Assembly (NCBI GenBank): GCA_027011025.1 | Contig: JALVAU010000088.1 | Location: forward strand, 1 to 11,305 | Length of the DNA stretch: 11,305 bases | Direction: 5' to 3' | DNA from: Campylobacteraceae bacterium | Lineage (GTDB): Bacteria; Campylobacterota; Campylobacteria; Campylobacterales; Sulfurospirillaceae | Part shown: one piece after another, positions 616 to 10,534 of the stretch | Position numbering within the stretch: the stretch's first letter is position 1 | How the letters are laid out: each line of letters opens with the position of its first letter | Position numbers and translations under genes: made by a program | Notes under the pieces: model-generated | Told to the model about the DNA's origin: nothing | The model's input: only the letters and a program-made list of their open reading frames with translations | Databases searched by the model: none

Positions 616-649
616 CTCGTTCCTTATTAGGTCATCACTGACTATTTTT

Positions 650-742
650 ATTCATTGACTGCTTTAGCAGTTAAAGCTATTTCTAGGCAACAGCCTAAGC
701 TTTAGTGCAATGAATTTAAAAGGGACTTTGTTCCTTTTAAAG
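650..742 (+). repeat. Structured element, copy 1 (before rpsJ)
   Basis: Copy 1 of an element found again at 9201-9261. Identical blocks are TAAGCTTTAGTG (696-707), GAATTTAA (712-719) and TTAAAG (737-742). The four variable bases CAAT (708-711) pair with ATTG (654-657). The hairpin after them (715-741, loop CTTTG) has a different stem sequence from copy 2 but the same position. The same orientation toward a downstream gene is kept in both copies. Confidence 0.6.
715..741 (+). other. 11-bp stem-loop in the rpsJ leader
   Basis: TTTAAAAGGGA (715-725) pairs with TTCCTTTTAAA (731-741), including one G-T wobble, around the five-base loop CTTTG. It ends 33 nt before the rpsJ ribosome binding site. 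The following bases (GAAAACAG) are not T-rich, so it is not a canonical intrinsic terminator. A T6 run at 769-774 lies 27 nt further on, too far to act with it. Confidence 0.6.
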
Positions 743-774
743 AAAACAGTTAGATAGGTGACAAGTTCTTTTTT

Positions 775-779
775 AGGGG
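775..779 (+). promoter_or_regulatory. Ribosome binding site fixing the rpsJ start
   Basis: AGGGG lies five bases before the ATG at 785. It supports that ATG over an in-frame alternative start at 758, which would add nine residues absent from S10 proteins. Confidence 0.75.
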
Positions 780-784
780 TAATT

Positions 785-1096
785 ATGGAAAAAATACGAC
801 TTAAACTCAAGGCACATGACCATAGAGTTTTAGACAGATCTGTTGCAGCAATTGTAGAAGCTGTTAAGCGAACTGGAGCTGAGATAAAAGGCCCAATTCC
901 TATGCCTACGAAGATAAAGCGCTATACAGTGCTTAAATCACCACATGTAAATAAAGATTCAAGAGAGCAATTTGAGATAAGAATTCATGCTCGTATGATA
1001 GATATCGTATCGGCAACTACCGATACTGTTGATTCATTGATGAAGCTTGACCTTGCACCTGAGGTGAATGTCGAAGTAAGAGCAATGGGTAAGTAG
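785..1096 (+). CDS. rpsJ: 30S ribosomal protein S10 (NusE)
   Basis: The 103-residue product is the normal length for S10. It carries the family patterns 'KLKAHDHR' near the N-terminus, '[14 protein letters not shown]' in the middle, and the highly conserved '[15 protein letters not shown]'. S10 sits in the head of the small subunit and, as NusE, also joins NusB and NusG in transcription antitermination and transcription-translation coupling. The start at 785 is chosen because it follows an AGGGG site and gives the standard '[10 protein letters not shown]' beginning. It is the first gene of the operon, downstream of a strong promoter and a structured leader, so signals acting on that leader would control the genes that follow. 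rplC begins about 10 nt after its stop. Confidence 0.98.
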
Positions 1097-1101
1097 GGGA
1101 G
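1096..1101 (+). promoter_or_regulatory. Ribosome binding site deciding the rplC start
   Basis: GGGGAG overlaps the last base of the rpsJ stop codon. Two ATGs follow in tandem at 1104 and 1107. The second lies at a usable spacing of five bases, while the first is only two bases away, so 1107 is preferred. Confidence 0.6.
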
Positions 1102-1106
1102 TAATG

Positions 1107-1685
1107 ATGGAATATATAGTAGAAAAAATTGGAATGAGCAGAACCGTAGAAGTTCCTAGCATTCCTGTAACATTACTTAAGGTTGTAGAAGCAAAAGTTT
1201 GTGAGGTTGACACTGACAAAAGAGCTATTGTAGCTTATGCTAGTGGTAAAAAAATGAATCGAGCAATTGCTGGAAAGCAAAAAAAGTATAACTTAAGTGC
1301 ACAGTTTAATCGTTTCGTAACACTTAAAGTTTCAAATGAAGAAGCAGGCGATCTAGACATATCTGCGCTTAGTGATGTAAAAGTTGTAAAATCAACTTTT
1401 GATTCTAAAGGTAGAGGTTTCGCAGGTGTTATGAAGAGATATAATTTTGCTGGTGGTCCAGGAGGACATGGTAGCCGTTTTCATAGAGCTCCGGGTTCAA
1501 TCGGTAATGCAGAGTGGCCAGGTCGTGTTCAAAAAGGCAGAAGAATGCCAGGACACTATGGAAATGCTAAAACAACAGTTAAAAATGAAGTTCTCTCTTT
1601 TGACGCACAAAATGGTATATTGGTCGTTAAAGGACCGGTTCCTGGCGCAAATGGAGCACTTGGAAGAGTGAGGATAGTTAAATGA
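1107..1685 (+). CDS. rplC: 50S ribosomal protein L3
   Basis: The 192-residue product fits bacterial L3. Recognisable parts are '[15 protein letters not shown]' (about 100-114), '[12 protein letters not shown]' (122-133), '[16 protein letters not shown]' (138-153) and a C-terminal '[11 protein letters not shown]'. L3 binds 23S rRNA early in assembly and sends a long loop toward the peptidyl transferase centre. Where E. coli has 'GQNQTPG', with the glutamine (Q150) methylated by PrmB, this protein has 'GNAEWPG' with no glutamine, so that modification is not expected here. The start at 1107 is set by the GGGGAG site; ATG 1104 would add one methionine. The stop overlaps the rplD start as ATGA, suggesting coupled translation. 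Confidence 0.97.
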
Positions 1686-2296
1686 GTAGTGCAATAGTAC
1701 TAAATGAGAAATTTGAAAATAGTGGAGAGTTGGCACTTCCTGAAAAATATGAAGATATAAACTCACACAACCTATACCTATATGTAAAATCATATCTAGC
1801 AAGTATTCGTGCAAATACTGCAAATACAAAGACTAGAGCCCAAGTGAGTGGTGGTGGTAAAAAACCATGGTCGCAAAAAGGTAAAGGTGGAGCTCGTGCT
1901 GGATCAAGTAGAAGTCCAATCTGGGTTGGCGGTGGTGTATCATTTGGACCAAAGTCAAATAGAAACTATGATCAAAAAGTAAATAAAAAACAGAAGAAAT
2001 TAGCACTTAGTTATGCCTTAAACGAAAAAGCTGCTGCAAATGCACTTTTTGTTACTGACTCTATAAGCATAGAATCAGGAAAGGCAAAAGATGCTGCTGC
2101 ATTGATAAAAACTTTGGGCGCTAGAGATGCCTTGATAGTAAAAGAGCTAGTAGATGAAAAAACATTTTTAGCGTTTAGAAATCTAAAGAATTGCTATCTT
2201 ATAGAAGCAAATGAGTTAAATGCTTATTTGACTACTGCATACTATACAGTAGTGATTGAAAAATCAATACTTGAAACAATAACAAAAGAGGGCTAA
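1682..2296 (+). CDS. rplD: 50S ribosomal protein L4
   Basis: The 204-residue product matches bacterial L4 (usually about 200-210). The diagnostic extended loop is '[20 protein letters not shown]' followed by '[20 protein letters not shown]', roughly residues 51-90; it lines the peptide exit tunnel. The C-terminal half is the globular Rossmann-like domain. In E. coli L4 also represses the S10 operon by binding its leader and causing transcription to stop; that activity is known from gammaproteobacteria and is only a possibility here. Its start codon overlaps the rplC stop (ATGA at 1682-1685). rplW follows after two bases. Confidence 0.97.
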
Positions 2297-2298
2297 TT

Positions 2299-2580
2299 AT
2301 GGCAGATATAACTGATATAAAAGCAATCCTTTATACTGAAAAGAGCTTGAGCCTTCAAGAAAATGGAACAGTTGTTATTCAAACATCAACAAGAATGACA
2401 AAAAATGGTCTAAAAGAAGTTTTAAGAGAGTATTTCGGTTTTACTCCACTCAAAATCAACTCTATGAGAGTTTTGGGAAAAGTAAAGAAATTTAAAGGAA
2501 TTGCCGGTAAAAGAAGTGATTCAAAAAAATTCTATGTTCAGCTACCTGAGGGTGCTAAACTAGAAAATCTGGAGGCGTAA
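2299..2580 (+). CDS. rplW: 50S ribosomal protein L23
   Basis: The 93-residue product is a usual length for L23. It begins '[16 protein letters not shown]', with the family's 'TEKS' motif, and has the tunnel-side section 'VNSMRVLGK'-like ('[15 protein letters not shown]') followed by '[11 protein letters not shown]'. L23 sits at the exit of the peptide tunnel and is the docking site for trigger factor and signal recognition particle. This is a fitting role in an operon that also encodes SecY and methionine aminopeptidase. The gene lies two bases after rplD and one base before rplB. Its 3' end contains the GGAGG (2571-2575) that serves rplB. Confidence 0.96.
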
Positions 2581-2581
2581 T

Positions 2582-3412
2582 ATGGCAATAAAATCATATA
2601 AACCATATACCCCGAGTCGTAGATATGTAACTGGCTTGGATTCAAGCGATATTACAGCTAAGGCGAGTGTCCCGTCATTGTTAAAAAAACTCCCAGTAAG
2701 TGCCGGTAGAAATAACAATGGAAGAATAACATCTCGTCATAAGCAAGGTGGCGCCAAGCGTCTATATAGAATTATAGATTTTAAAAGAAGAAAGTTTGAC
2801 ATAGAAGGTACTGTAAGTGCTATTGAATATGATCCAAACAGAAACTGTCGTATAGCATTAATCACATATGCTGATGGAGAGAAAAGATATATAATTCAGC
2901 CTTCAGGTCTTAAAGTTGGAGATATAGTCCAATCTGCTGAAGCTGGACTTGATATTAAGCCTGGCAATGCTATGAAGATGAAAAATATTCCAGTCGGTAC
3001 TATCATCCATAATATCGAGATGAAACCGGGACATGGTGCACAGATGGCAAGAAGTGCCGGTGGATATGCTCAACTTATGGGTAAAGAAGAGAAGTATGTA
3101 GTTCTTAGACTTCCTAGCGGTGAGATGAGACAAGTTTTAAGCGAATGTATGGCAACAGTTGGAACAGTTGGATGTGAAGATTGGGCAAATGTTGTTATCG
3201 GTAAAGCCGGTCGTAATCGCCACAGAGGGATTCGTCCTCAAACAAGAGGTAGTGCTATGAACCCAGTTGATCACCCGCATGGTGGTGGTGAAGGTAAAAA
3301 GAATTCAGGTCGTCACCCAGTTACTCCTTGGGGTAAACCAACTAAGGGTGCTAAGACTCGTAGAAAAAAAGCGAGTGATAAACTGATTATTTCTAGAAGA
3401 AAAGGAAAATAG
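2582..3412 (+). CDS. rplB: 50S ribosomal protein L2
   Basis: The 276-residue product is full-length L2. The N-terminal '[12 protein letters not shown]', the OB-fold region with '[16 protein letters not shown]' (52-67), the SH3-like part '[22 protein letters not shown]' in outline (139-160) and the C-terminal '[15 protein letters not shown]' (226-240) are all present. His231 corresponds to the conserved histidine (H229 in E. coli) next to the peptidyl transferase centre. L2 is needed for subunit joining and tRNA binding. The GGAGG before its ATG lies inside the end of rplW. The rpsS start follows immediately after its TAG stop with no spacer. Confidence 0.98.
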
Positions 3413-3694
3413 ATGGCAAGAAGTCTAAAAAAAGGTCCTTTCGTAGATTCTCACTTGGCAAAAAAAGTCGAAGTTGCAAAAGCAGCTAACTCTAACAAGC
3501 CTATAAAAACTTGGTCAAGAAGAAGTACTATTACTCCTGATATGATCGGATTGACATTTAATGTACACAATGGAAGAAATTTTGTTCCGGTATATATAAC
3601 AGAGAATCATGTTGGATATAAAATGGGTGAATTTTCTCCTACAAGAACATTTAAAGGCCACAAGGGCTCTGTTCAGAAGAAAATTGGTAAGTAG
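3413..3694 (+). CDS. rpsS: 30S ribosomal protein S19
   Basis: The 93-residue product has the standard S19 opening '[15 protein letters not shown]', the central '[16 protein letters not shown]' and the ending '[15 protein letters not shown]'. S19 forms a complex with S13 in the small-subunit head and contacts the A-site region and the inter-subunit bridge. The ATG directly abuts the rplB stop. An AAGGA site lies in the last codons of rplB. Length and sequence are ordinary. rplV follows after eight bases. Confidence 0.98.
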
Positions 3695-3702
3695 GAGTAG
3701 TT

Positions 3703-4035
3703 ATGAGTAAAGCAGTATTAAAATTTATAAGATTATCTCCTACAAAAGCAAGGCTAATAGCAAGAGAAGTACAGGGAATGAACGCTGAAATTGCACTAGC
3801 AAGATTAGAGTTTACGCCGAATAAAGCTGCTCGCGTTATCTCCAAGGTGATAGCATCAGCTGTAGCAAATGGTGGTTATGAACCAGAAGAAGTTATTATA
3901 TCTTCTTGTCGTGTTGACGCTGGTCCTGTACTTAAAAGATTTAGACCAAGAGCAAGAGGAAGTGCAAGTGGAATTAGAAAACCTACTTCACATGTGATGG
4001 TTGAAGTTAGCGAAGCTGCAAAGAAGGAAGACTAA
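3703..4035 (+). CDS. rplV: 50S ribosomal protein L22
   Basis: The 110-residue product matches L22: '[20 protein letters not shown]' near the start, then '[21 protein letters not shown]' in outline, and the tunnel hairpin '[19 protein letters not shown]' followed by '[16 protein letters not shown]'. The beta-hairpin reaches into the peptide exit tunnel, where in other bacteria mutations give macrolide resistance. Nothing unusual is visible in the hairpin. An AGGAG (3693-3697) overlapping the rpsS stop serves as its ribosome binding site. rpsC starts one base after its TAA. Confidence 0.97.
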
Positions 4036-4036
4036 G

Positions 4037-4729
4037 ATGGGTCAAAAAGTAAATCCAATTGGTTTAAGACTTGGAATCAATAGAAATTGGGATTCAAGAT
4101 GGTATCCGGGTGTAAATATGGCAGCAAATATCGGTGAAGATTATAAGATAAGAACTTTTTTAAAGAAAGAACTCTATTATGCCGGTGTTAGTCAAATTAT
4201 CATCGAAAGAACCGCAAAAAAACTTAGAGTTACAGTTGTTGCGGCTCGTCCGGGAATCATCATAGGTAAAAAGGGTGCAGATATTGAAAAGCTTAGAGTT
4301 AAACTAAATAAGCTTATCGGTAAAGATGTAAATGTAAATATCAAAGAAGAGAGAAAAGCACAAGCTTCAGCTCAACTAGCAGCAGAAAATGTTGCGATGC
4401 AATTAGAGAGAAGAGTTGCATTTAGAAGAGCTATGAAAAAAGTTATCCAAGGTGCTCAAAAATCTGGTGCAAAGGGTATAAAAATATCAGTTGCCGGAAG
4501 ATTGGGTGGTGCAGAGATGGCAAGAACTGAGTGGTATCTTGAAGGAAGAGTTCCTCTTCATACACTAAGAGCCAAGATTGATTATGGTTTCGCAGAAGCT
4601 CATACAACTTACGGTATTATTGGTGTAAAAGTATGGATATTTAAAGGTGAAGTTTTAAGCAAGGGTGTTCCAGCTGAAAAGGCTGAGCCACGAGAGCCTA
4701 GAAAACCAAGAAGAAGAGGTAGAAACTAA
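4037..4729 (+). CDS. rpsC: 30S ribosomal protein S3
   Basis: The 230-residue product begins with the near-invariant '[14 protein letters not shown]', which fixes the start at 4037 rather than an in-frame ATG at 4001. A type II KH domain is visible, with the GXXG loop GKKG at residues 77-80 within '[15 protein letters not shown]'. The C-terminal S3 domain contains '[18 protein letters not shown]' and '[20 protein letters not shown]'. The tail is rich in arginine, lysine and proline. S3 lies at the mRNA entry channel, contributes to mRNA helicase activity and binds S10 and S14. It follows rplV by one base and overlaps rplP by one base (TAATG). Confidence 0.98.
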
Positions 4730-5154
4730 TGTTAATGCCAAAAAGAACAAAATATAAAAAGCAGATGAAGGGTCGTAATCGCGGTAAATCTTTCAGAGGC
4801 AATACTATTGCTTTTGGAGAGATTGCACTTAAAGCAATTGAAGCCGGCAGGATTGATTCTCGCCAGATTGAAGCGGCTAGAATTGCGATGACTAGAAAAG
4901 TAAATAGACAAGCAAAGACTTGGATAAGAGTATTCCCTGATAAACCTTTGACAGCAAAGCCACTAGAGACTAGGATGGGTAAAGGTAAAGGACCTGTTGA
5001 TAGATGGGTTATGAATATAAAGCCGGGTCGTATAGTTTATGAGATGGCAGGAGTCAGTGAAGAGCTTGCAAGAGCAGCTTTAACTCTAGCTATGCACAAA
5101 CTTCCATTTAAAACAAAAATTATAACTAAAGAGAGCGAAAATGAAGTATATTGA
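4729..5154 (+). CDS. rplP: 50S ribosomal protein L16
   Basis: The 141-residue product opens '[19 protein letters not shown]', the usual L16 start, and carries '[14 protein letters not shown]', '[20 protein letters not shown]', '[17 protein letters not shown]' and '[19 protein letters not shown]'. L16 organises the A-site side of the large subunit and is among the last proteins to join. An internal ATG at 4735 is possible, but the 4729 start gives the conserved MLMPKR and overlaps the rpsC stop by one base. Its last 14 bases overlap the rpmC start in another frame, an unusually long overlap for this operon. Confidence 0.98.
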
Positions 5155-5329
5155 TTTAAAAGAGAAAAATGCTTCAGAACTTTTGGAGTTATTAAAAGAG
5201 AAAAAGGTTCTTCTGTTTACAGTAAAACAGAAATTAAAAACAATGCAACTAACTAATCCAAATGAGTTAAGAGAAGTTAGAAGAGATATTGCGCGTATTA
5301 ATACGGCTATTTCCGCTCAAAATAAGTAA
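5141..5329 (+). CDS. rpmC: 50S ribosomal protein L29
   Basis: The 62-residue product fits L29, a two-helix antiparallel hairpin. The visible pattern is '[20 protein letters not shown]', then '[21 protein letters not shown]' in outline, and '[16 protein letters not shown]'. The '[16 protein letters not shown]' pattern is typical. L29 sits near the tunnel exit beside L23. The ATG lies inside the last codons of rplP, giving a 14-bp overlap, and the AAAGAGAG just upstream lies in rplP coding sequence. rpsQ follows after 13 bases. Confidence 0.96.
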
Positions 5330-5342
5330 TTAAGGGTAAGTA

Positions 5343-5594
5343 ATGGCTTTAAAAAGAGAGATTCAAGGCGTAGTTGTACAAAAGGCTGGTGAAAAAACAG
5401 CTACTATTTTGGTTGAAAGAAGAGTAATGCACCCGCGATATCGCAAGTTCGTTAAACGATTCAAAAAATACCTTGTACACGATGAAAAAAATCAAGTAAA
5501 AGCAGGCGACGAAATAATCGCTATAGAGTGCAGACCACTATCTAAAAATAAATCTTTTAGATTAAAAGAAATCGTATCTGTAGGAGTTGAGTAA
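5343..5594 (+). CDS. rpsQ: 30S ribosomal protein S17
   Basis: The 83-residue product is a normal S17, an OB-fold primary binder of 16S rRNA. Family motifs are '[20 protein letters not shown]', '[20 protein letters not shown]' in outline, '[22 protein letters not shown]' in outline and 'KSFRLKEIV'. S17 is one of the proteins that starts assembly of the small-subunit body. A GGG-containing site (TTAAGGGTAAGTA) precedes the ATG. The stop overlaps the rplN start by one base (TAATG), consistent with coupled translation. Confidence 0.97.
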
Positions 5595-5962
5595 TGATTC
5601 AAAGTTTTACTAGACTCAAAGTTGCTGACAATACCGGTGCAAAAGAGATTATGTGTATAAAAGTATTGGGCGGCAGTAAGAGAAGATATGCAAGTGTTGG
5701 TGATGTTATCGTAGCTTCTGTAAAGAAAGCGATACCAACTGCAAAGGTTAAAAAAGGTCAAGTTGTAAAAGCTGTTATTGTTAGAACTAAAAAAGAGATT
5801 CAAAGAGAAAATGGATCTTTAATTAGATTTGATGAAAATGCTGCGGTTATACTTGATAGTAAAAAAGAGCCTATGGGAACAAGAATTTTTGGACCTGTAA
5901 GTCGTGAAGTAAGATATGCAAACTTTATGAAGATTGTATCACTTGCTCCGGAGGTACTATAA
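5594..5962 (+). CDS. rplN: 50S ribosomal protein L14
   Basis: The 122-residue product has exactly the common L14 length. It opens '[20 protein letters not shown]' and includes '[19 protein letters not shown]', '[17 protein letters not shown]' and '[13 protein letters not shown]'. L14 makes an inter-subunit bridge with 16S rRNA and is the target of the silencing factor RsfS in other bacteria. The gene overlaps rpsQ by one base upstream and rplX by one base downstream, both as TAATG. Confidence 0.98.
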
Positions 5963-6198
5963 TGTCAGTTAAATTTAAAATCAAAAAAGGTGATAGTGTA
6001 AAGATTATTGCCGGAGATGATAAGGGTAAAGTCGCAAAAGTTACTAAAGTTCTTCCAAAAAGTTCTCAAGTAATTGTTGAGGGTTGCAAGATAGTTAAAA
6101 AAGCTATCAAGCCTGATGACAATCACCCAAAAGGTGGATTTGTAAACAAAGAGATGCCAATCCATATCTCAAATGTGCAAAAAGTTGAGGGTGAGTGA
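5962..6198 (+). CDS. rplX: 50S ribosomal protein L24
   Basis: The 78-residue product is a short-form L24; E. coli L24 is about 104 residues. Visible is the KOW motif near the N-terminus, '[20 protein letters not shown]', followed by '[17 protein letters not shown]' and '[19 protein letters not shown]'. L24 is one of the two proteins that start large-subunit assembly. The start overlaps the rplN stop (TAATG) and the stop overlaps the rplE start (TGATG). A GGAGG at about 5949-5953, inside the end of rplN, serves as its ribosome binding site. Confidence 0.96.
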
Positions 6199-6743
6199 TG
6201 AATAGATTAAAAGCAAGATACAGTGCAGAAATCAAAGAAGCATTAGTAAAAGAGTTTGATATAAAAAACCCTATGTTGATACCTGCGATTGAGAAAGTTG
6301 TTATTAGTGTTGGTGCCGGTGAAGAGGGAAAAGATAATAAAATTATTCAAAATATAGTTGATACTATCTCTTTAATAGCAGGACAAAAAGCTGTAACAAC
6401 AGTAGCTAAAAAATCAGTAGCAGGTTTTAAAGTAAGAGAAGGATATCCTGTTGGTGTAAAAGTTACACTAAGAGATGAGAGAATGTATGCGTTTTTAGAT
6501 AAATTGATAGCAGTCGCACTTCCTCGTGTAAAGGATTTCCGTGGTCTTCCAAGAAATGGATTTGATGGTAGAGCAAACTATAACTTTGGATTAGATGAGC
6601 AGTTAATGTTTCCTGAGGTAGAGTATGATGATATACTTAAAACTCATGGTATGAACATTACAATTGTAACAACAGCCGGTGATGACAAGCAAGCATATAA
6701 GCTTCTTGAGCTAATCGGGCTACCATTCGCAAAGGGTCGTTAA
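6198..6743 (+). CDS. rplE: 50S ribosomal protein L5
   Basis: The 181-residue product is a normal L5. Typical patterns are '[17 protein letters not shown]', '[20 protein letters not shown]', '[22 protein letters not shown]' in outline, '[19 protein letters not shown]' and '[12 protein letters not shown]'. L5 binds 5S rRNA with L18 and contacts the P-site tRNA. The ATG at 6198 overlaps the rplX TGA by one base. A GTG three bases earlier is possible but less likely. In E. coli S8 represses this part of the operon by binding near the rplX-rplE junction; I see no clear copy of that rRNA-like site here. Confidence 0.97.
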
Positions 6744-6744
6744 A

Positions 6745-6930
6745 ATGGCAAAGAAATCAATGATAGCTAAGGCAAATAGAAAAGCCAAGTTTAGTACAAG
6801 AGCATACACTAGATGTCAAATTTGTGGTCGTCCGCATTCTGTTTATAGAGATTTTGGTATATGTAGAATTTGCCTGAGAAAAATGGCAAATGAGGGTCTG
6901 ATTCCAGGACTCAAAAAAGCAAGTTGGTAA
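6745..6930 (+). CDS. rpsN: 30S ribosomal protein S14, zinc-binding type
   Basis: The 61-residue product is the short S14 form. Cys24, Cys27, Cys40 and Cys43 ('CQIC' ... 'CRIC') make a CXXC-X12-CXXC zinc ribbon, so this is the C+ type rather than the longer zinc-free form. The C-terminal '[18 protein letters not shown]' is typical of the family. S14 binds 16S rRNA in the head beside S3 and S10. It begins one base after rplE stops. Under zinc limitation some bacteria swap this type for a zinc-free paralogue; no such gene is in the window. Confidence 0.98.
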
Positions 6931-6939
6931 GGAAATATA

Positions 6940-7335
6940 ATGATAAATGATCTCGTAGCAGATTCTATAACAAGAATTAGAAATGCAGCCATGAGAAAAT
7001 TGGATGTTACTACGCTTATGCACTCAAAACTTGTAGAGGCTGTTATGGTTGTATTCCAGAACAAAGGCTATATAGAAAGTTTTAATGTTGTAGAAGATGG
7101 TAACAAAAAATTTATAAAAGTTGTGATTAAGTATGACAACAGTGGTAAAAGTGTTATAACAGAAGTGAAAAGAATATCAAAGCCTGGTAGAAGAGTCTAC
7201 AAAGGTAAAGATGAGATAAAGCGCTTCAAAAATGGTTATGGAACGATAGTAGTTAGTACATCAAAAGGTGTACTTAGTAACGAAGAAGCACACAAGGCAA
7301 ATGTCGGTGGCGAACTTCTTTGTAGTATTTGGTAA
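6940..7335 (+). CDS. rpsH: 30S ribosomal protein S8
   Basis: The 131-residue product has the S8 opening '[20 protein letters not shown]', a middle section '[20 protein letters not shown]' and the C-terminal signature '[20 protein letters not shown]' followed by '[19 protein letters not shown]'. S8 is a primary binder of 16S rRNA helix 21 and, in E. coli, the translational repressor of the spc operon. The only non-trivial spacer inside the ribosomal gene run, 73 bases, follows this gene; all other gaps before it are 13 nt or less. A weak AAGGA-like site precedes the ATG. Confidence 0.98.
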
Positions 7336-7408
7336 GAAGTTTTCTTTTTATGGTATTCGATATCCATTTTAAGATGTAGACTTATCGTAGACAAGTAAAA
7401 GGAAAAAA
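7336..7408 (+). other. 73-nt spacer between rpsH and rplF with two weak stem-loops
   Basis: This is by far the largest gap between ribosomal protein genes here. It contains a pyrimidine-rich stretch (TTTTCTTTTTA), an imperfect hairpin ATGGTAT-TCG-ATA(T)CCAT (7350-7367, one bulged T), and a second imperfect hairpin ACTTATC-GTA-GACAAGT (7380-7396, one mismatch). The hexamer GTAGAC occurs at 7376-7381 and 7387-7392. AAAAGGA (7397-7403) is the rplF ribosome binding site. The best -10-like match (TAAGAT at 7370) has no good -35, so I do not call a promoter. Confidence 0.45.
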
Positions 7409-7945
7409 ATGTCTCGTATTGGAAAACAACCAGTAAAGATACCAAGTGGTATTGATGTAAAAGTTGATGGTACAGTTTTGGTATTTAAAAAAGGAAGTGT
7501 TCAAAAAGAGTTGGACACAAAGGGAAATGTTATCATGAAGGTAGAAGATGGAAATATCGTCTTTACACCTAAGAGTGATGATAGAAAAGATAGTGCTTTT
7601 TGGGGAACTTATAGATCTTTAAGCCAAAATGTGATCATTGGATTGACGGATGGTTTTGAGAAAAAACTTGAAATTAATGGAGTTGGTTACAGGGCGGCAG
7701 TTAAAGGAAATGTACTAGAACTTCAACTAGGTTTTTCACATCCTGTAAATTATGAATTTCCAAAAGATCTTAAAGTTACAGTTGAGAAAAATATCATTAC
7801 TATCAAAGGTGATGATAAACAAGTTGTAGGTCAAGTTGCAGCAGAAGTTAGAGCGTTTAGACCACCTGAGCCATATAAAGGTAAAGGTGTTAAATATTCT
7901 GATGAAGTTATTATCCGCAAAGCCGGAAAAACAGCTAAGAAATAG
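7409..7945 (+). CDS. rplF: 50S ribosomal protein L6
   Basis: The 178-residue product is a full-length two-domain L6. It opens '[19 protein letters not shown]', has '[20 protein letters not shown]' near the middle and ends with the diagnostic '[20 protein letters not shown]' plus a lysine-rich tail. L6 lies near the sarcin-ricin loop and the factor-binding site of the large subunit. AAAAGGA sits five bases before the ATG. It is preceded by the 73-nt spacer and followed by rplR after eight bases. Confidence 0.98.
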
Positions 7946-7953
7946 AGGTTAAA

Positions 7954-8310
7954 ATGAGACAAAATATTTTAAAACGCAAGTTAAATTTAAGAGCTAAGCG
8001 TAAGAGAAGAGTAAGAGCTAAAATTTCCGGTACTAGTGATTTAGTGAGAGTTTCTATTTTTAAATCAAATAGATCAGTTTATGCACAAGCAATTGATGAT
8101 GTAAACGGCGTGACACTAGCTAGTGTGGATGGTAATAAATTAGGACTTAAGGCAAATAAAACCGGAGCAAGTGAATTAGGAAAGGTTTTTGCGCAAACTC
8201 TTAAGTCAAAAGATTTAAACAAGGTAGTATTTGATAGAAATGGATATCTCTATCATGGAGTTGTGGCTGCTTTCGCACAAGGCCTTAGAGACAACGGTAT
8301 TACACTGTAA
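7954..8310 (+). CDS. rplR: 50S ribosomal protein L18
   Basis: The 118-residue product fits bacterial L18. It has a basic, arginine/lysine-rich N-terminus ('[15 protein letters not shown]'), then '[18 protein letters not shown]', 'GVTLASVDG' and the C-terminal '[20 protein letters not shown]' with 'LRDNGI'. L18 binds 5S rRNA and, with L5, helps dock it onto the large subunit. The AGAGGTTAAA before the ATG is its ribosome binding site. rpsE follows after 16 bases. Confidence 0.97.
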
Positions 8311-8326
8311 ATAAAGGAACGATATA

Positions 8327-8770
8327 ATGGAAAAATATAATAGAGAAGAGTTTGAAGAAGTTATCGTGAACATTGGTCGTGTAACAAAAGTTGTCAAAGG
8401 TGGTAGAAGATTTAGATTTACTGCTCTTGTAGTAGTTGGCAACAAAAAGGGACTTGTAGGATACGGATTTGGTAAAGCCAAAGAGGTTCCAAACGCGATT
8501 AAAAAAGCAGTTGACGATGCTTTTAAAAATATAATGGAAGTAAATATAAAAGGCTCGACTATAGCACACGATGTAGAAGTTAAGTTTAATTCAAGCAGAA
8601 TTTTACTTAAGCCGGCTAGTGAGGGTACTGGTATCATCGCTGGTGGCGCTACCCGTCCTGTTGTTGAGTTGGCTGGTATTAAAGATATTTTGACTAAGTC
8701 ATTGGGTTCAAACAATGCTTCAAATGTTGTAAGAGCTACACTAAAAGCTCTTAGTATGTTAAAAAGCTAA
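8327..8770 (+). CDS. rpsE: 30S ribosomal protein S5
   Basis: The 147-residue product is S5, somewhat shorter than the 167 residues of E. coli. The N-terminal double-stranded RNA-binding domain has '[20 protein letters not shown]' and '[17 protein letters not shown]'. The C-terminal domain has '[19 protein letters not shown]', '[18 protein letters not shown]' and '[15 protein letters not shown]'. S5 works with S4 in translation accuracy and lies near the mRNA entry site. rplO follows after 14 bases. The gene for L30 (rpmD), which in many bacteria lies here, is absent, as expected for Campylobacterota. Confidence 0.98.
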
Positions 8771-8784
8771 AGGAAGGATGAATT

Positions 8785-9189
8785 ATGGCATTAGATAATT
8801 TAACACCGGCAATTAAATCTACACACAAGACTAAAAGAAAAGGTCGCGGTCAAGGTTCTGGTATGGGAAAAACGGCAAGTCGTGGTGCAAATGGTCAAAA
8901 ATCTCGTACAGGTTATAGTATAAAAAGAGGATTTGAAGGTGGTCAGCAACCACTACAAAGAAGACTTCCAAAGGTTGGTTTTTATTCTGGTCTAGTCAAG
9001 CCTTATGTAATAAATGTAGAGAAAATAAAATCCGTAACTGCTCTTGAAGAGATTACAATGGATACACTTCGTGCTGTTCACAAGATAGCGAACTCTGTAA
9101 AGCAAGTTAAATTGATTGGTAAGGGTGCAAAAGAGTTGGCAGCAAAAATCAAAGACGAAAATGTGATCTATAGCGGAATGAATAAATAA
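8785..9189 (+). CDS. rplO: 50S ribosomal protein L15
   Basis: The 134-residue product is L15. The glycine- and basic-rich N-terminal extension is typical: '[18 protein letters not shown]', '[20 protein letters not shown]' and '[12 protein letters not shown]'. The globular C-terminal half is shorter and less conserved, with a '[19 protein letters not shown]' segment. L15 is a late assembly protein that threads through 23S rRNA. An AAGGAAGG site precedes the ATG. An 82-base spacer containing a strong hairpin separates it from secY. Confidence 0.96.
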
Positions 9190-9200
9190 GAGATGAAGTA

Positions 9201-9261
9201 CTCTATGCAAAGCATAAGCTTTAGTGAGAGGAATTTAACTTGGGCTTAGCCCAAGTTAAAG
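9201..9261 (+). repeat. Structured element, copy 2 (before secY)
   Basis: Copy 2 of the element found before rpsJ (650-742). It shares TAAGCTTTAGTG (9215-9226), GAATTTAA (9231-9238) and the closing TTAAAG (9256-9261). The four variable bases AGAG (9227-9230) can pair with CTCT (9201-9204), just as CAAT pairs with ATTG in copy 1. Between them AAAGC (9209-9213) can pair with GCTTT (9218-9222), or TATGC (9204-9208) with GCATA (9212-9216). Confidence 0.6.
9234..9260 (+). other. 12-bp perfect stem-loop touching the secY ribosome binding site
   Basis: TTTAACTTGGGC (9234-9245) pairs without mismatch with GCCCAAGTTAAA (9249-9260) around a TTA loop. The last three bases of the 3' arm are also the first three of the AAAGGAG ribosome binding site. 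No T-run follows, so a normal rho-independent terminator is unlikely. It could slow or adjust secY translation, protect the mRNA or mark a processing site. Confidence 0.75.
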
Positions 9262-9264
9262 GAG
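9258..9264 (+). promoter_or_regulatory. secY ribosome binding site
   Basis: AAAGGAG lies seven bases before the secY ATG at 9272. Its first three bases lie in the 3' arm of the upstream 12-bp stem, so access by the ribosome could depend on that stem. Confidence 0.75.
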
Positions 9265-9271
9265 ACATTGA

Positions 9272-10534
9272 ATGAGTAAAGATTTAACAAAAAAAATTTT
9301 GATTACCTTAGGTTTCATCTTTGCATACAGGATTTTGGCTTATGTGCCGGTTCCTGGTGTAAACTTAGATGTTGTAAAAGAGTTTTTTGACTCTAACAGT
9401 TCAAATGCTCTAGGTATGTTTAATATGTTTAGTGGAAATGCTGCAAAAAGGCTGAGTATAATTTCATTGGGAATTATGCCTTATATCACCGCTTCTATTG
9501 TTATGGAACTTTTGGCAGCTACTTTTCCATCTCTTGGAAAGATGAAAAAAGAGAGAGATGGTATGACAAAATATATGCAAATTATTCGTTATGCTACGAT
9601 TGCAATTACAATAGTTCAAGCAATTGGTGTATCTATGGGTCTAGGAAGTTTGACCGGTCGTGGTGGAGAGAGTGCTGTTATGATTGACAGGACAACTTTT
9701 ATGGCAATTGCGGCAGCTTCAATGTTGACTGGAACCATGCTTCTTATGTGGATAGGTGAGCAAATTACCCAAAGAGGTATAGGAAACGGTATTAGTCTTA
9801 TCATTTTTGCAGGAATTGTTTCAGGTATTCCTCATGCGATAGGCGGAACTATAAATCTTGTAAATACAGGTGAGTTAAACTTTTTGATAGTTTTAGCAAT
9901 ACTGGTCGTTATACTTGTTACGGTCGGCGTCATTATATATGTAGAAACAGGAGAGAGAAGGGTACCGATATCATATTCACGAAAAGTCATGATGCAAAAT
10001 CAACATAAAAGAATTATGAATTATGTGCCTATTAAAGTTAACTTAAGTGGTGTTATTCCTCCTATTTTTGCTAGTGCAATTTTGATGTTTCCGTCAACTT
10101 TGCTTCAGGCTAGCACAAATCCGATAGTATTGAGTATCAAAGACTTTCTAAGTCCTGGCAGTTATGTATTTAATGTTCTTACATTTTTATTTGTGATATT
10201 CTTTTCATATTTTTACGCATCAATTGTATTTAATGCTAAAGATATATCTGAAAATTTAAAAAAACAGGGTGGATTTATTCCCGGAGTTAGACCCGGAATA
10301 CACACAGCTGATTTTTTAAATGATGTTGCAAGTCGTCTGACATTTTGGGGAGCGATATACTTAGGATTGATTTCAACTCTGCCGTGGGTTCTAGTAAAAT
10401 TTATGGGAGTTCCATTCTATTTTGGAGGAACTGCTGTTTTGATTGTTGTACAAGTTGCACTTGATACCATGAGAAAGATAGAGGCACAGATATATATGAG
10501 CAAGTATGAAACACTTAGTGCGGTAGGTCTATAG
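9272..10534 (+). CDS. secY: Preprotein translocase subunit SecY
   Basis: The 420-residue product is a full-length SecY, the channel of the SecYEG translocon in the inner membrane. About ten hydrophobic segments are seen, starting at residues 9-25 and ending around 384-398. Family markers are the plug-region 'LGMFNMFSGNAAKRLSIISLG' in outline (47-67), 'GIMPYITASIVMELL' (67-81), 'ERDGMTKYMQIIRY' (94-107), 'ITQRGIGNGIS' (165-175), 'VETGERRVPISY' (224-235) and the cytoplasmic C5 loop 'GGFIPGVRPG' (333-342), which touches SecA and the ribosome. Translation may be affected by the hairpin just upstream. The TAG stop overlaps the GTG of map by one base. Confidence 0.98.
   Translation: MSKDLTKKILITLGFIFAYRILAYVPVPGVNLDVVKEFFDSNSSNALGMFNMFSGNAAKRLSIISLGIMPYITASIVMELLAATFPSLGKMKKERDGMTKYMQIIRYATIAITIVQAIGVSMGLGSLTGRGGESAVMIDRTTFMAIAAASMLTGTMLLMWIGEQITQRGIGNGISLIIFAGIVSGIPHAIGGTINLVNTGELNFLIVLAILVVILVTVGVIIYVETGERRVPISYSRKVMMQNQHKRIMNYVPIKVNLSGVIPPIFASAILMFPSTLLQASTNPIVLSIKDFLSPGSYVFNVLTFLFVIFFSYFYASIVFNAKDISENLKKQGGFIPGVRPGIHTADFLNDVASRLTFWGAIYLGLISTLPWVLVKFMGVPFYFGGTAVLIVVQVALDTMRKIEAQIYMSKYETLSAVGL

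What the first reader, a model, noticed from the sequence alone, without database searches (positions are those of the whole stretch)
650..9261. One structured element occurs twice, before rpsJ and before secY, with compensating stem changes
Seen directly: TAAGCTTTAGTG, four variable bases, GAATTTAA, a hairpin, then TTAAAG occur at 696-742 and 9215-9261 in the same orientation. Hairpin stems differ in sequence (AAGGGA with TTCCTT; CTTGGGC with GCCCAAG) but both pair. The four variable bases also pair with different upstream partners: ATTG (654-657) with CAAT, and CTCT (9201-9204) with AGAG. Keeping pairing while sequence changes suggests selection on RNA structure, or a palindromic dispersed repeat. 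The two places are the start of the operon and the secY junction, where regulation would make sense. I do not know a named family that fits.
Basis: partly seen in the sequence, partly recalled or inferred. Interest (0 to 1): 0.75.

Follow-up and report, generated by a model that had tools for sequence, protein, structure and literature searches.

The report
Dispersed hairpin elements at gene starts
The two copies belong to a large, apparently undescribed family of short two-hairpin sequences that come and go in sulfur-cycling Campylobacterota genomes and sit mostly directly before protein-gene starts, where they often supply the ribosome-binding site.

Summary
The repeat is real and one of dozens. 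A covariance model built without the window copies finds 41 copies in this genome at E<=0.01, 20-85 in the nine other same-genus genomes, but 0-4 in genus g3. Its two hairpins (P2, P3) covary strongly. The claimed pairing of the four variable bases with upstream partners is not shown as a family feature. In G003, 49 of 55 clusters are followed within 100 nt by a same-strand gene start, 0 of 55 by one on the opposite strand. In the commonest type P3 abuts a Shine-Dalgarno (SD) sequence, with the ATG 10-13 nt after P3. The downstream proteins fall into 116 families. Orthologous sites show gain and decay: at rpsJ it is an insert in the loop of a native leader hairpin, partly deleted in sister species; at argF and secY it separates genes that abut in relatives. 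No Rfam match. Best reading: a dispersed, probably mobile element that works in RNA as a structured leader, often with its own ribosome-binding site.

The parts
637..756 (+). Whole insert at the rpsJ leader: lies in the loop of the native leader hairpin GTCATC (631-636) / GGTGAC (757-762)
   Evidence: Comparison of 30 orthologous rpsJ leaders: native hairpin (or close variants) without the element in G002, G007, G008, G009 and the 14 g3 genomes fetched
638..648 (+). 5' strand of an outer stem (CTGACTATTTT) pairing with 743-753 (AAAACAGTTAG), one mismatch
   Evidence: MFE fold of 634-765; same complementarity read in G005
679..746 (+). Element copy 1 as matched by covariance model R1 (70.6 bits)
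   Evidence: genome-wide E 1.6e-13
684..697 (+). P2 hairpin, copy 1 (TAGGC-AACA-GCCTA)
   Evidence: sequence; P2 covaries across the family
698..707 (+). Conserved linker AGCTTTAGTG, copy 1
715..741 (+). P3 hairpin, copy 1 (12 bp, loop TTT); no SD follows it; rpsJ has its own SD at 775-779 and ATG at 785
9199..9265 (+). Element copy 2 as matched by R1 (86.2 bits), between rplO and secY
   Evidence: genome-wide E 2.5e-17
9204..9216 (+). P2 hairpin, copy 2 (TATGC-AAA-GCATA)
   Evidence: sequence; the MFE fold of this single copy prefers an alternative pairing that uses the linker
9217..9226 (+). Conserved linker AGCTTTAGTG, copy 2
9234..9260 (+). P3 hairpin, copy 2 (TTTAACTTGGGC-TTA-GCCCAAGTTAAA)
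9261..9265 (+). Shine-Dalgarno GGAGA directly after P3; secY ATG at 9272
   Evidence: sequence; family-wide position

Best explanation
The two copies belong to a dispersed, probably non-autonomous mobile family of about 67-85-nt elements in Campylobacterota (record titles: mainly Sulfurospirillum, Sulfurovum, Sulfurimonas and unnamed relatives). Anatomy: TTCT - hairpin P2 - AGCTTTAGT(G/C) - a short variable stretch - GAATTT - hairpin P3 - tail. In the commonest type the tail is AAAGGAGA or AAAAGGGGA, an SD placed so that the ATG follows 10-13 nt after P3. In other types (the rpsJ copy is one) the tail has no SD and the gene keeps its own further down. Shown here: dispersal, gain and loss at orthologous sites, start-proximal sense placement at protein genes, covariation of P2 and P3. 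Inferred: the DNA copy is inserted at or just before translation starts by unknown machinery, and in the mRNA P3 folds next to the SD and works as a portable ribosome-binding-site cassette (docking site and/or 5' stabiliser) rather than as a ligand-specific switch. At each gene it starts as an insertion, may be kept if it supplies the SD, and otherwise decays.
For: Copies: 53 at E<=1, 41 at E<=0.01 in this genome (3 of the 20 seed rows are other copies of this genome). Taxonomic contrast: of 80 named loci holding the bare pattern, 63 match R1 at E<=1e-5 (6 of them are seeds), 0 of the 15 from other phyla and 0 of 13 viral contigs. Sense starts: G003 49 of 55 clusters, opposite strand 0 of 55, random positions 250 of 2200; own 18 of 24, 0 of 24, 97 of 960. 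ATG 10-13 nt after P3 in 125 of the 173 copies (of 256) that had a start with an SD-like motif within 60 nt; 116 protein families. Covariation. Sense-strand asymmetry in P3: G.U 37 against A.C 9 over 57 dissimilar arm pairs. Sequences on both sides of P3 change together: fourth N4 base G with SD 76 of 85, T with SD 1 of 26, of 113 copies. Filled and empty sites at rpsJ, secY, argF.
Against: No mobilising enzyme found: Y1_Tnp (PF01797) was not found in G000, G004 and G021, which hold 41, 40 and 52 copies. No clear target-site duplication. P2 shows no G.U excess (9 against 8), so RNA-level selection is indicated only for P3, and shared ancestry of copies may inflate it. Single-sequence folding leaves the linker only 33% unpaired on average and often replaces P2. 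Copies also lie inside RNase P RNA, 3 nt before 16S rRNA and in tRNA spacers, two of the three distinct spacer sites antisense to the tRNAs, so translation is not the whole story. No expression data.
Confidence: 0.68

Rival explanations
1. A selfish REP/MITE-like palindrome with no RNA function; its gene-start position reflects insertion preference, and its perfect arms come from DNA-level quasi-palindrome correction by template switching, which mends stems without selection.
For: Copy-number jumps between genera, decay at rpsJ, tandem arrays, copies in rnpB and tRNA spacers, turnover at shared genes, no G.U excess in P2.
Against: G.U 37 against A.C 9 in P3 is not expected from a strand-symmetric DNA process; fixed P3-ATG spacing over many gene families; hairpin plus SD kept at secY, clearly in 8 of 10 same-genus genomes (by eye).
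Confidence: 0.2
2. A true cis-regulatory RNA class (riboswitch or protein-binding leader) with a common trigger, inherited vertically and recruited to many genes.
For: Strong covariation, a conserved linker, sense-strand position before starts, flanks of P3 that change together; many growth-related genes among the targets (names read by eye).
Against: 116 protein families downstream, patchy gain and loss, loss of linker or P3 at rpsJ in sister species, presence in RNase P RNA, no competing stem with covariation support, no Rfam match.
Confidence: 0.1
3. Chance plus one local duplication inside this operon.
For: Only two copies lie in the window.
Against: Dozens of copies per genome, and 42 of 100 genomes (own included) with the 14-base pattern against 2 reversed-control hits in all.
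Confidence: 0.01

Closest known systems
BOX elements of Streptococcus pneumoniae (PMC3049150, passages seen)
   Same: Short modular dispersed repeats with tandem internal units, strongly folded if transcribed, some forming small ORFs, held to be non-autonomous.
   Different: That paper's table reports BOX, RUP and SPRITE over-represented between convergent genes; this family sits before starts on the gene's strand and often supplies the SD.
Correia/NEMIS elements of Neisseria (PMC2649163: start of abstract in the listing; passages of review PMC10969869)
   Same: Small palindromic mobile repeats, co-transcribed, able to change neighbouring gene expression.
   Different: Described there for promoters at the ends, IHF and RNase III; RNase III cleavage not testable here. 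No SD cargo in the passages seen.
REP/BIME sequences with RAYT (Y1) transposases (recalled; PMC12306157 searched for terms only)
   Same: Many short imperfect palindromes outside genes, in tandem and dispersed.
   Different: Arms vary from copy to copy while pairing is kept, and copy number does not follow presence of Y1_Tnp. The tetranucleotide rule of REPs is recalled and was not tested.
Rickettsia palindromic elements (passage of PMC10969869)
   Same: Palindromic inserts, also with conserved peptides.
   Different: Described there as often inserted in frame inside ORFs; here mostly before the ORF.

Membership tests
Any Rfam 15 family | Match at or near gathering score | tested here: not met
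   5 matches in the window at E<=5, best 25.1 bits against a cut-off of 83; in 9 element loci only rRNA, RNase P and tRNA reached gathering score
REP with RAYT/IS200-type transposase | Y1 transposase in genomes with many copies | tested here: not met
   0 Y1_Tnp matches in G000, G004, G021 with 41, 40, 52 copies; the 17 g3 genomes searched have 1-3 Y1_Tnp with 0-4 copies. Several assemblies are incomplete
MITE | Dispersed, highly base-paired, non-autonomous repeat | tested here: met
   only short ORFs start in the units (28-39 codons among tandem copies)
MITE | Terminal inverted repeats and target-site duplication | tested here: inconclusive
   Complementary ends at the rpsJ insert and ATTC/GAAT ends at argF, but no clean duplication in the filled/empty pairs read
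MITE | Related autonomous insertion sequence with the same ends | not tested
   Only PF01797 was searched
Ribosomal-protein leader or riboswitch | Conserved at the same gene across relatives | tested here: not met
   rpsJ: complete in 2, incomplete in 3, absent in the other same-genus and all g3 leaders read; secY: absent in the 20 g2, g3 and g5 loci fetched
Structured RNA under selection | Compensatory base pairs beyond controls | tested here: met
   0 of 500 shuffles and no slid register reach the observed covariation score; seed rows had been chosen partly for pairing
NEMIS/Correia | RNase III cleavage, promoter at ends, IHF site | not testable with these tools
   none

The most novel reading that the evidence does not exclude
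A class of mobile element that targets translation starts: it inserts between the upstream sequence and the ATG, brings its own ribosome-binding site with a shielding hairpin, sometimes leaves a 28-codon upstream ORF whose stop overlaps the real ATG (translational coupling), and so re-sets translation of roughly 2% of genes (49 starts in a 2.2-Mb genome, assuming about one gene per kb) while spreading.
Probability: 0.3. Interest if true: 0.85.

Novelty: new variant of a known kind. Interest (0 to 1): 0.64.

Why it matters
Small dispersed repeats are usually treated as tolerated junk; the pneumococcal ones are reported as enriched between convergent genes. A family found mostly at start codons, often carrying the SD and keeping two covarying hairpins, would be a natural case of mobile translation-control parts, and would give Campylobacterota annotation a missing feature class (it also sits in RNase P RNA and before 16S rRNA). 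It makes a direct question testable: does insertion of the cassette change protein output, and what moves it?

Tried and rejected
N4 pairing with an upstream partner as a conserved stem P1: not shown by covariation, though folding favours it in 40 of 77 leaders; only TTC/GAA is near-constant, which gives no covariation evidence either way. A switch in which the upstream pyrimidine stretch pairs with either AGAGGAA or the SD: on average 1.87 expected pairs with the first and 0.66 with the SD, and 14 of 77 leaders above 1.5 with the SD; not convincing. Y1 transposase link: no correlation seen. Plasmid and phage vectors: no match of the secY copy in either annotated collection; 13 viral contigs with the bare pattern, none with the element. 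Automatic search for empty sites among fetched loci mostly returned tandem units against each other, so filled/empty comparisons were read by eye. Papers: the searches listed no description of this family; the library lacks most subscription journals and all bioRxiv preprints. PMC8632094, PMC3847290 and PMC12306157 were searched for key terms only.
Full report
What was claimed.

Check. The sequence is as stated. AGCTTTAGTG occurs 32 times in this genome against 1 for the reversed pattern. Stretches 645-745 and 9192-9265 fold better than every one of 200 shuffles; a longer rpsJ stretch (640-780) is equalled by 3 of 200. No Rfam family fits.

Anatomy. From genome copies and a pattern scan of species genomes the unit is: TTCT, hairpin P2 (4-6 bp, loop most often AAA or GNNA), AGCTTTAGTG, four variable bases, GAATTT, hairpin P3 (about 12 bp, loop mostly TTT or TTYAC; loops), tail. 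A covariance model R1 (67 positions, 17 pairs) was built from 20 copies, neither window copy among them (3 are other copies of this genome). P2 and P3 covary: 13 of 17 pairs have a double change, score 0.699 against 0.199 for shuffles and at most 0.160 for slid registers. The seed rows had been chosen partly for pairing, which raises the percentage paired more than the number of pair types. The N4 pairing is not shown: over 113 copies it is no commoner than with shuffled N4 at five of six offsets, and at the sixth equals the highest of 200 shuffles; folding of single leaders favours it in 40 of 77. The same folding leaves the linker only 33% unpaired on average, and for the secY copy it replaces P2 by a pairing with the linker, so the drawn P2 rests on covariation, not on energy.

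Which strand. If stems were kept only as DNA, G.T and A.C mismatches should be about equally common on the sense strand. In P3, after removing similar arms (57 kept of 256), G.U is 37 and A.C is 9; with all 203 unique arms 136 and 36. In P2 it is 9 and 8 over 98 unique arms, no asymmetry. So RNA-level selection is indicated for P3 only, and inherited variants may inflate the count.

Copies and spread. R1 finds 53 copies at E<=1 and 41 at E<=0.01 in this genome. Of 60 genomes searched, own included, 39 match: the nine other same-genus genomes 20-85 copies, genus g5 7-60, g2 19-43, but g3 0-4 (at most 86 candidates scored per genome). Over the phylum 44 of 298 genomes, own included, match at E<=1e-5 (at most 17 scored). 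Of 80 named loci with the bare pattern, 63 match R1 at E<=1e-5 (6 are seeds); 62 carry Campylobacterota-type titles and one is titled only 'bacterium'; the 15 loci of other phyla and two Campylobacter loci do not match at that level (one of the 15, L106, matches weakly at 2e-4).

Where copies sit. I placed 84 G003 copies (55 clusters) and 37 own copies (24 clusters) against starts of ORFs with an SD-like motif. Same-strand start within 100 nt: 49 of 55 and 18 of 24. Opposite-strand start: 0 of 55 and 0 of 24. Random positions: 250 of 2200 and 97 of 960. The six misses in G003 are three tRNA-spacer copies, a copy near a contig end, a 49-codon ORF below the length cut and a truncated copy. For 256 copies from all loci, 173 have such a start within 60 nt and 83 do not (these include inner tandem copies and copies at RNA genes); 125 of the 173 lie 10-13 nt after P3, and the proteins fall into 116 families. 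Many look like housekeeping genes; the names are read by eye from the proteins and were not run against a family library.

Types. SD types end AAAGGAGA or AAAAGGGGA and are mostly followed by ATG. Other types end AAGATGACAGTTAAATA, AAAGAAGA or AAAGAAAACAG and the gene has its own SD further on. The base before GAAT predicts the type: G with SD 76 of 85, T with SD 1 of 26. Thus the boxes on both sides of P3 tend to be both SD-like or both not, which fits a two-sided ribosome docking site around P3 but also plain subfamily descent. In G003, of 51 SD-type copies 35 run straight into an ORF of 60 codons or more, 4 have no start, and 12 start a shorter ORF; 7 of these 12 are exactly 28 codons, with TGA overlapping the next ATG. 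This may be coupling or a by-product of unit length.

Gain and loss (read by eye). rpsJ (30 leaders): a native hairpin, GTCATC/GGTGAC or close variants, lies before the SD; the element is an insert in its loop in G000 and G005 (complete), G003 (P2 and linker lost), G001 (P3 lost) and G006 (remnant); none in G002, G007, G008, G009 or the 14 g3 genomes; G021 carries an unrelated insert. secY (30 loci): in the 20 g2, g3 and g5 loci the rplO stop overlaps or lies within 3 nt of the secY ATG; all 10 same-genus genomes have a spacer, in 8 with a clear hairpin before the SD (less regular in G002 and G007), but the full element with linker only in G000 and G004. argF (30 loci): present in 7 (G003, G005, G013, G011, G015, G018, G026) with different types and copy numbers, another hairpin in G025, absent in 20, two not readable (G008 and G023). 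Between this genome and G003, 11 of 18 element-bearing genes have an element in both; in 5 the elements are 91-99% alike, in 6 they are 54-83% alike, each of these 6 less alike than the best unrelated copy in at least one of the two genomes. This is turnover at shared sites.

Other RNAs. Copies lie inside class A RNase P RNA (4 loci), 3 nt before the matched 5' end of 16S rRNA (L064), and between tRNA genes, in both orientations. Insertion in hairpin loops and spacers seems tolerated.

Mechanism. Shown: dispersal, start-proximal sense placement, SD within the element, covarying stems, gain and loss. Inferred: insertion near starts by unknown machinery, and action of P3 plus SD in translation or mRNA stability. 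Y1 transposase presence does not track copy number. The secY copy has no match in the plasmid and phage collections.

Place among known things. It works most like BOX, Correia or REP repeats and is best called a new family of small dispersed repeats with RNA structure; it fails tests for Rfam classes and for RAYT dependence, and MITE status is open because target duplication is inconclusive. The position bias is the opposite of that reported for pneumococcal repeats (PMC3049150, passages). The paper searches listed no description of it.

Noticed in passing
L059, L061, L065, L092 (element at 1470-1535, 1484-1549, 1470-1535, 1695-1764): A copy lies inside class A RNase P RNA, same strand; the ribozyme model still matches end to end.
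   Followed up: partly
L064 1471-1537 (-): A copy ends 3 nt before the Rfam-matched 5' end of 16S rRNA (match ends at 1467); L068 has a near-identical copy and flank.
   Followed up: partly
L189 159-224 (+) and 443-509 (-); L283 1564-1631 (+) and 1846-1911 (-); L285 1579-1646 (-): Copies sit in spacers of tRNA clusters; in L283 one is sense before tRNA-Leu and one antisense after tRNA-Cys.
   Followed up: partly
L303, L293, L296, L306, L308: Tandem units encode 28-codon ORFs such as MKLYRASARALVARNFCGIHFRKKGTIK whose stop overlaps the next ATG.
   Followed up: partly
L198, L202, L204, L207: In or next to some copies of this genome P3 is replaced by a longer palindrome CTGCCCATAAAG...CTTTATGGGCAG.
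   Followed up: no
L183 847-940 (-), L185 3-96 (+): 47-bp tandem units holding only P2 and the linker upstream of a full copy, before an nth-like gene and rplK (names by eye).
   Followed up: no
window 631-636 and 757-762: The rpsJ leader has a native hairpin GTCATC/GGTGAC kept, with variants, in the family's genomes, whatever is inserted in its loop; it could be an S10-operon leader feature of its own.
   Followed up: no
L363 (G025): At the argF upstream junction another, unrelated hairpin (GGGACAGG...CCTGTCCC) is inserted at the same place.
   Followed up: no
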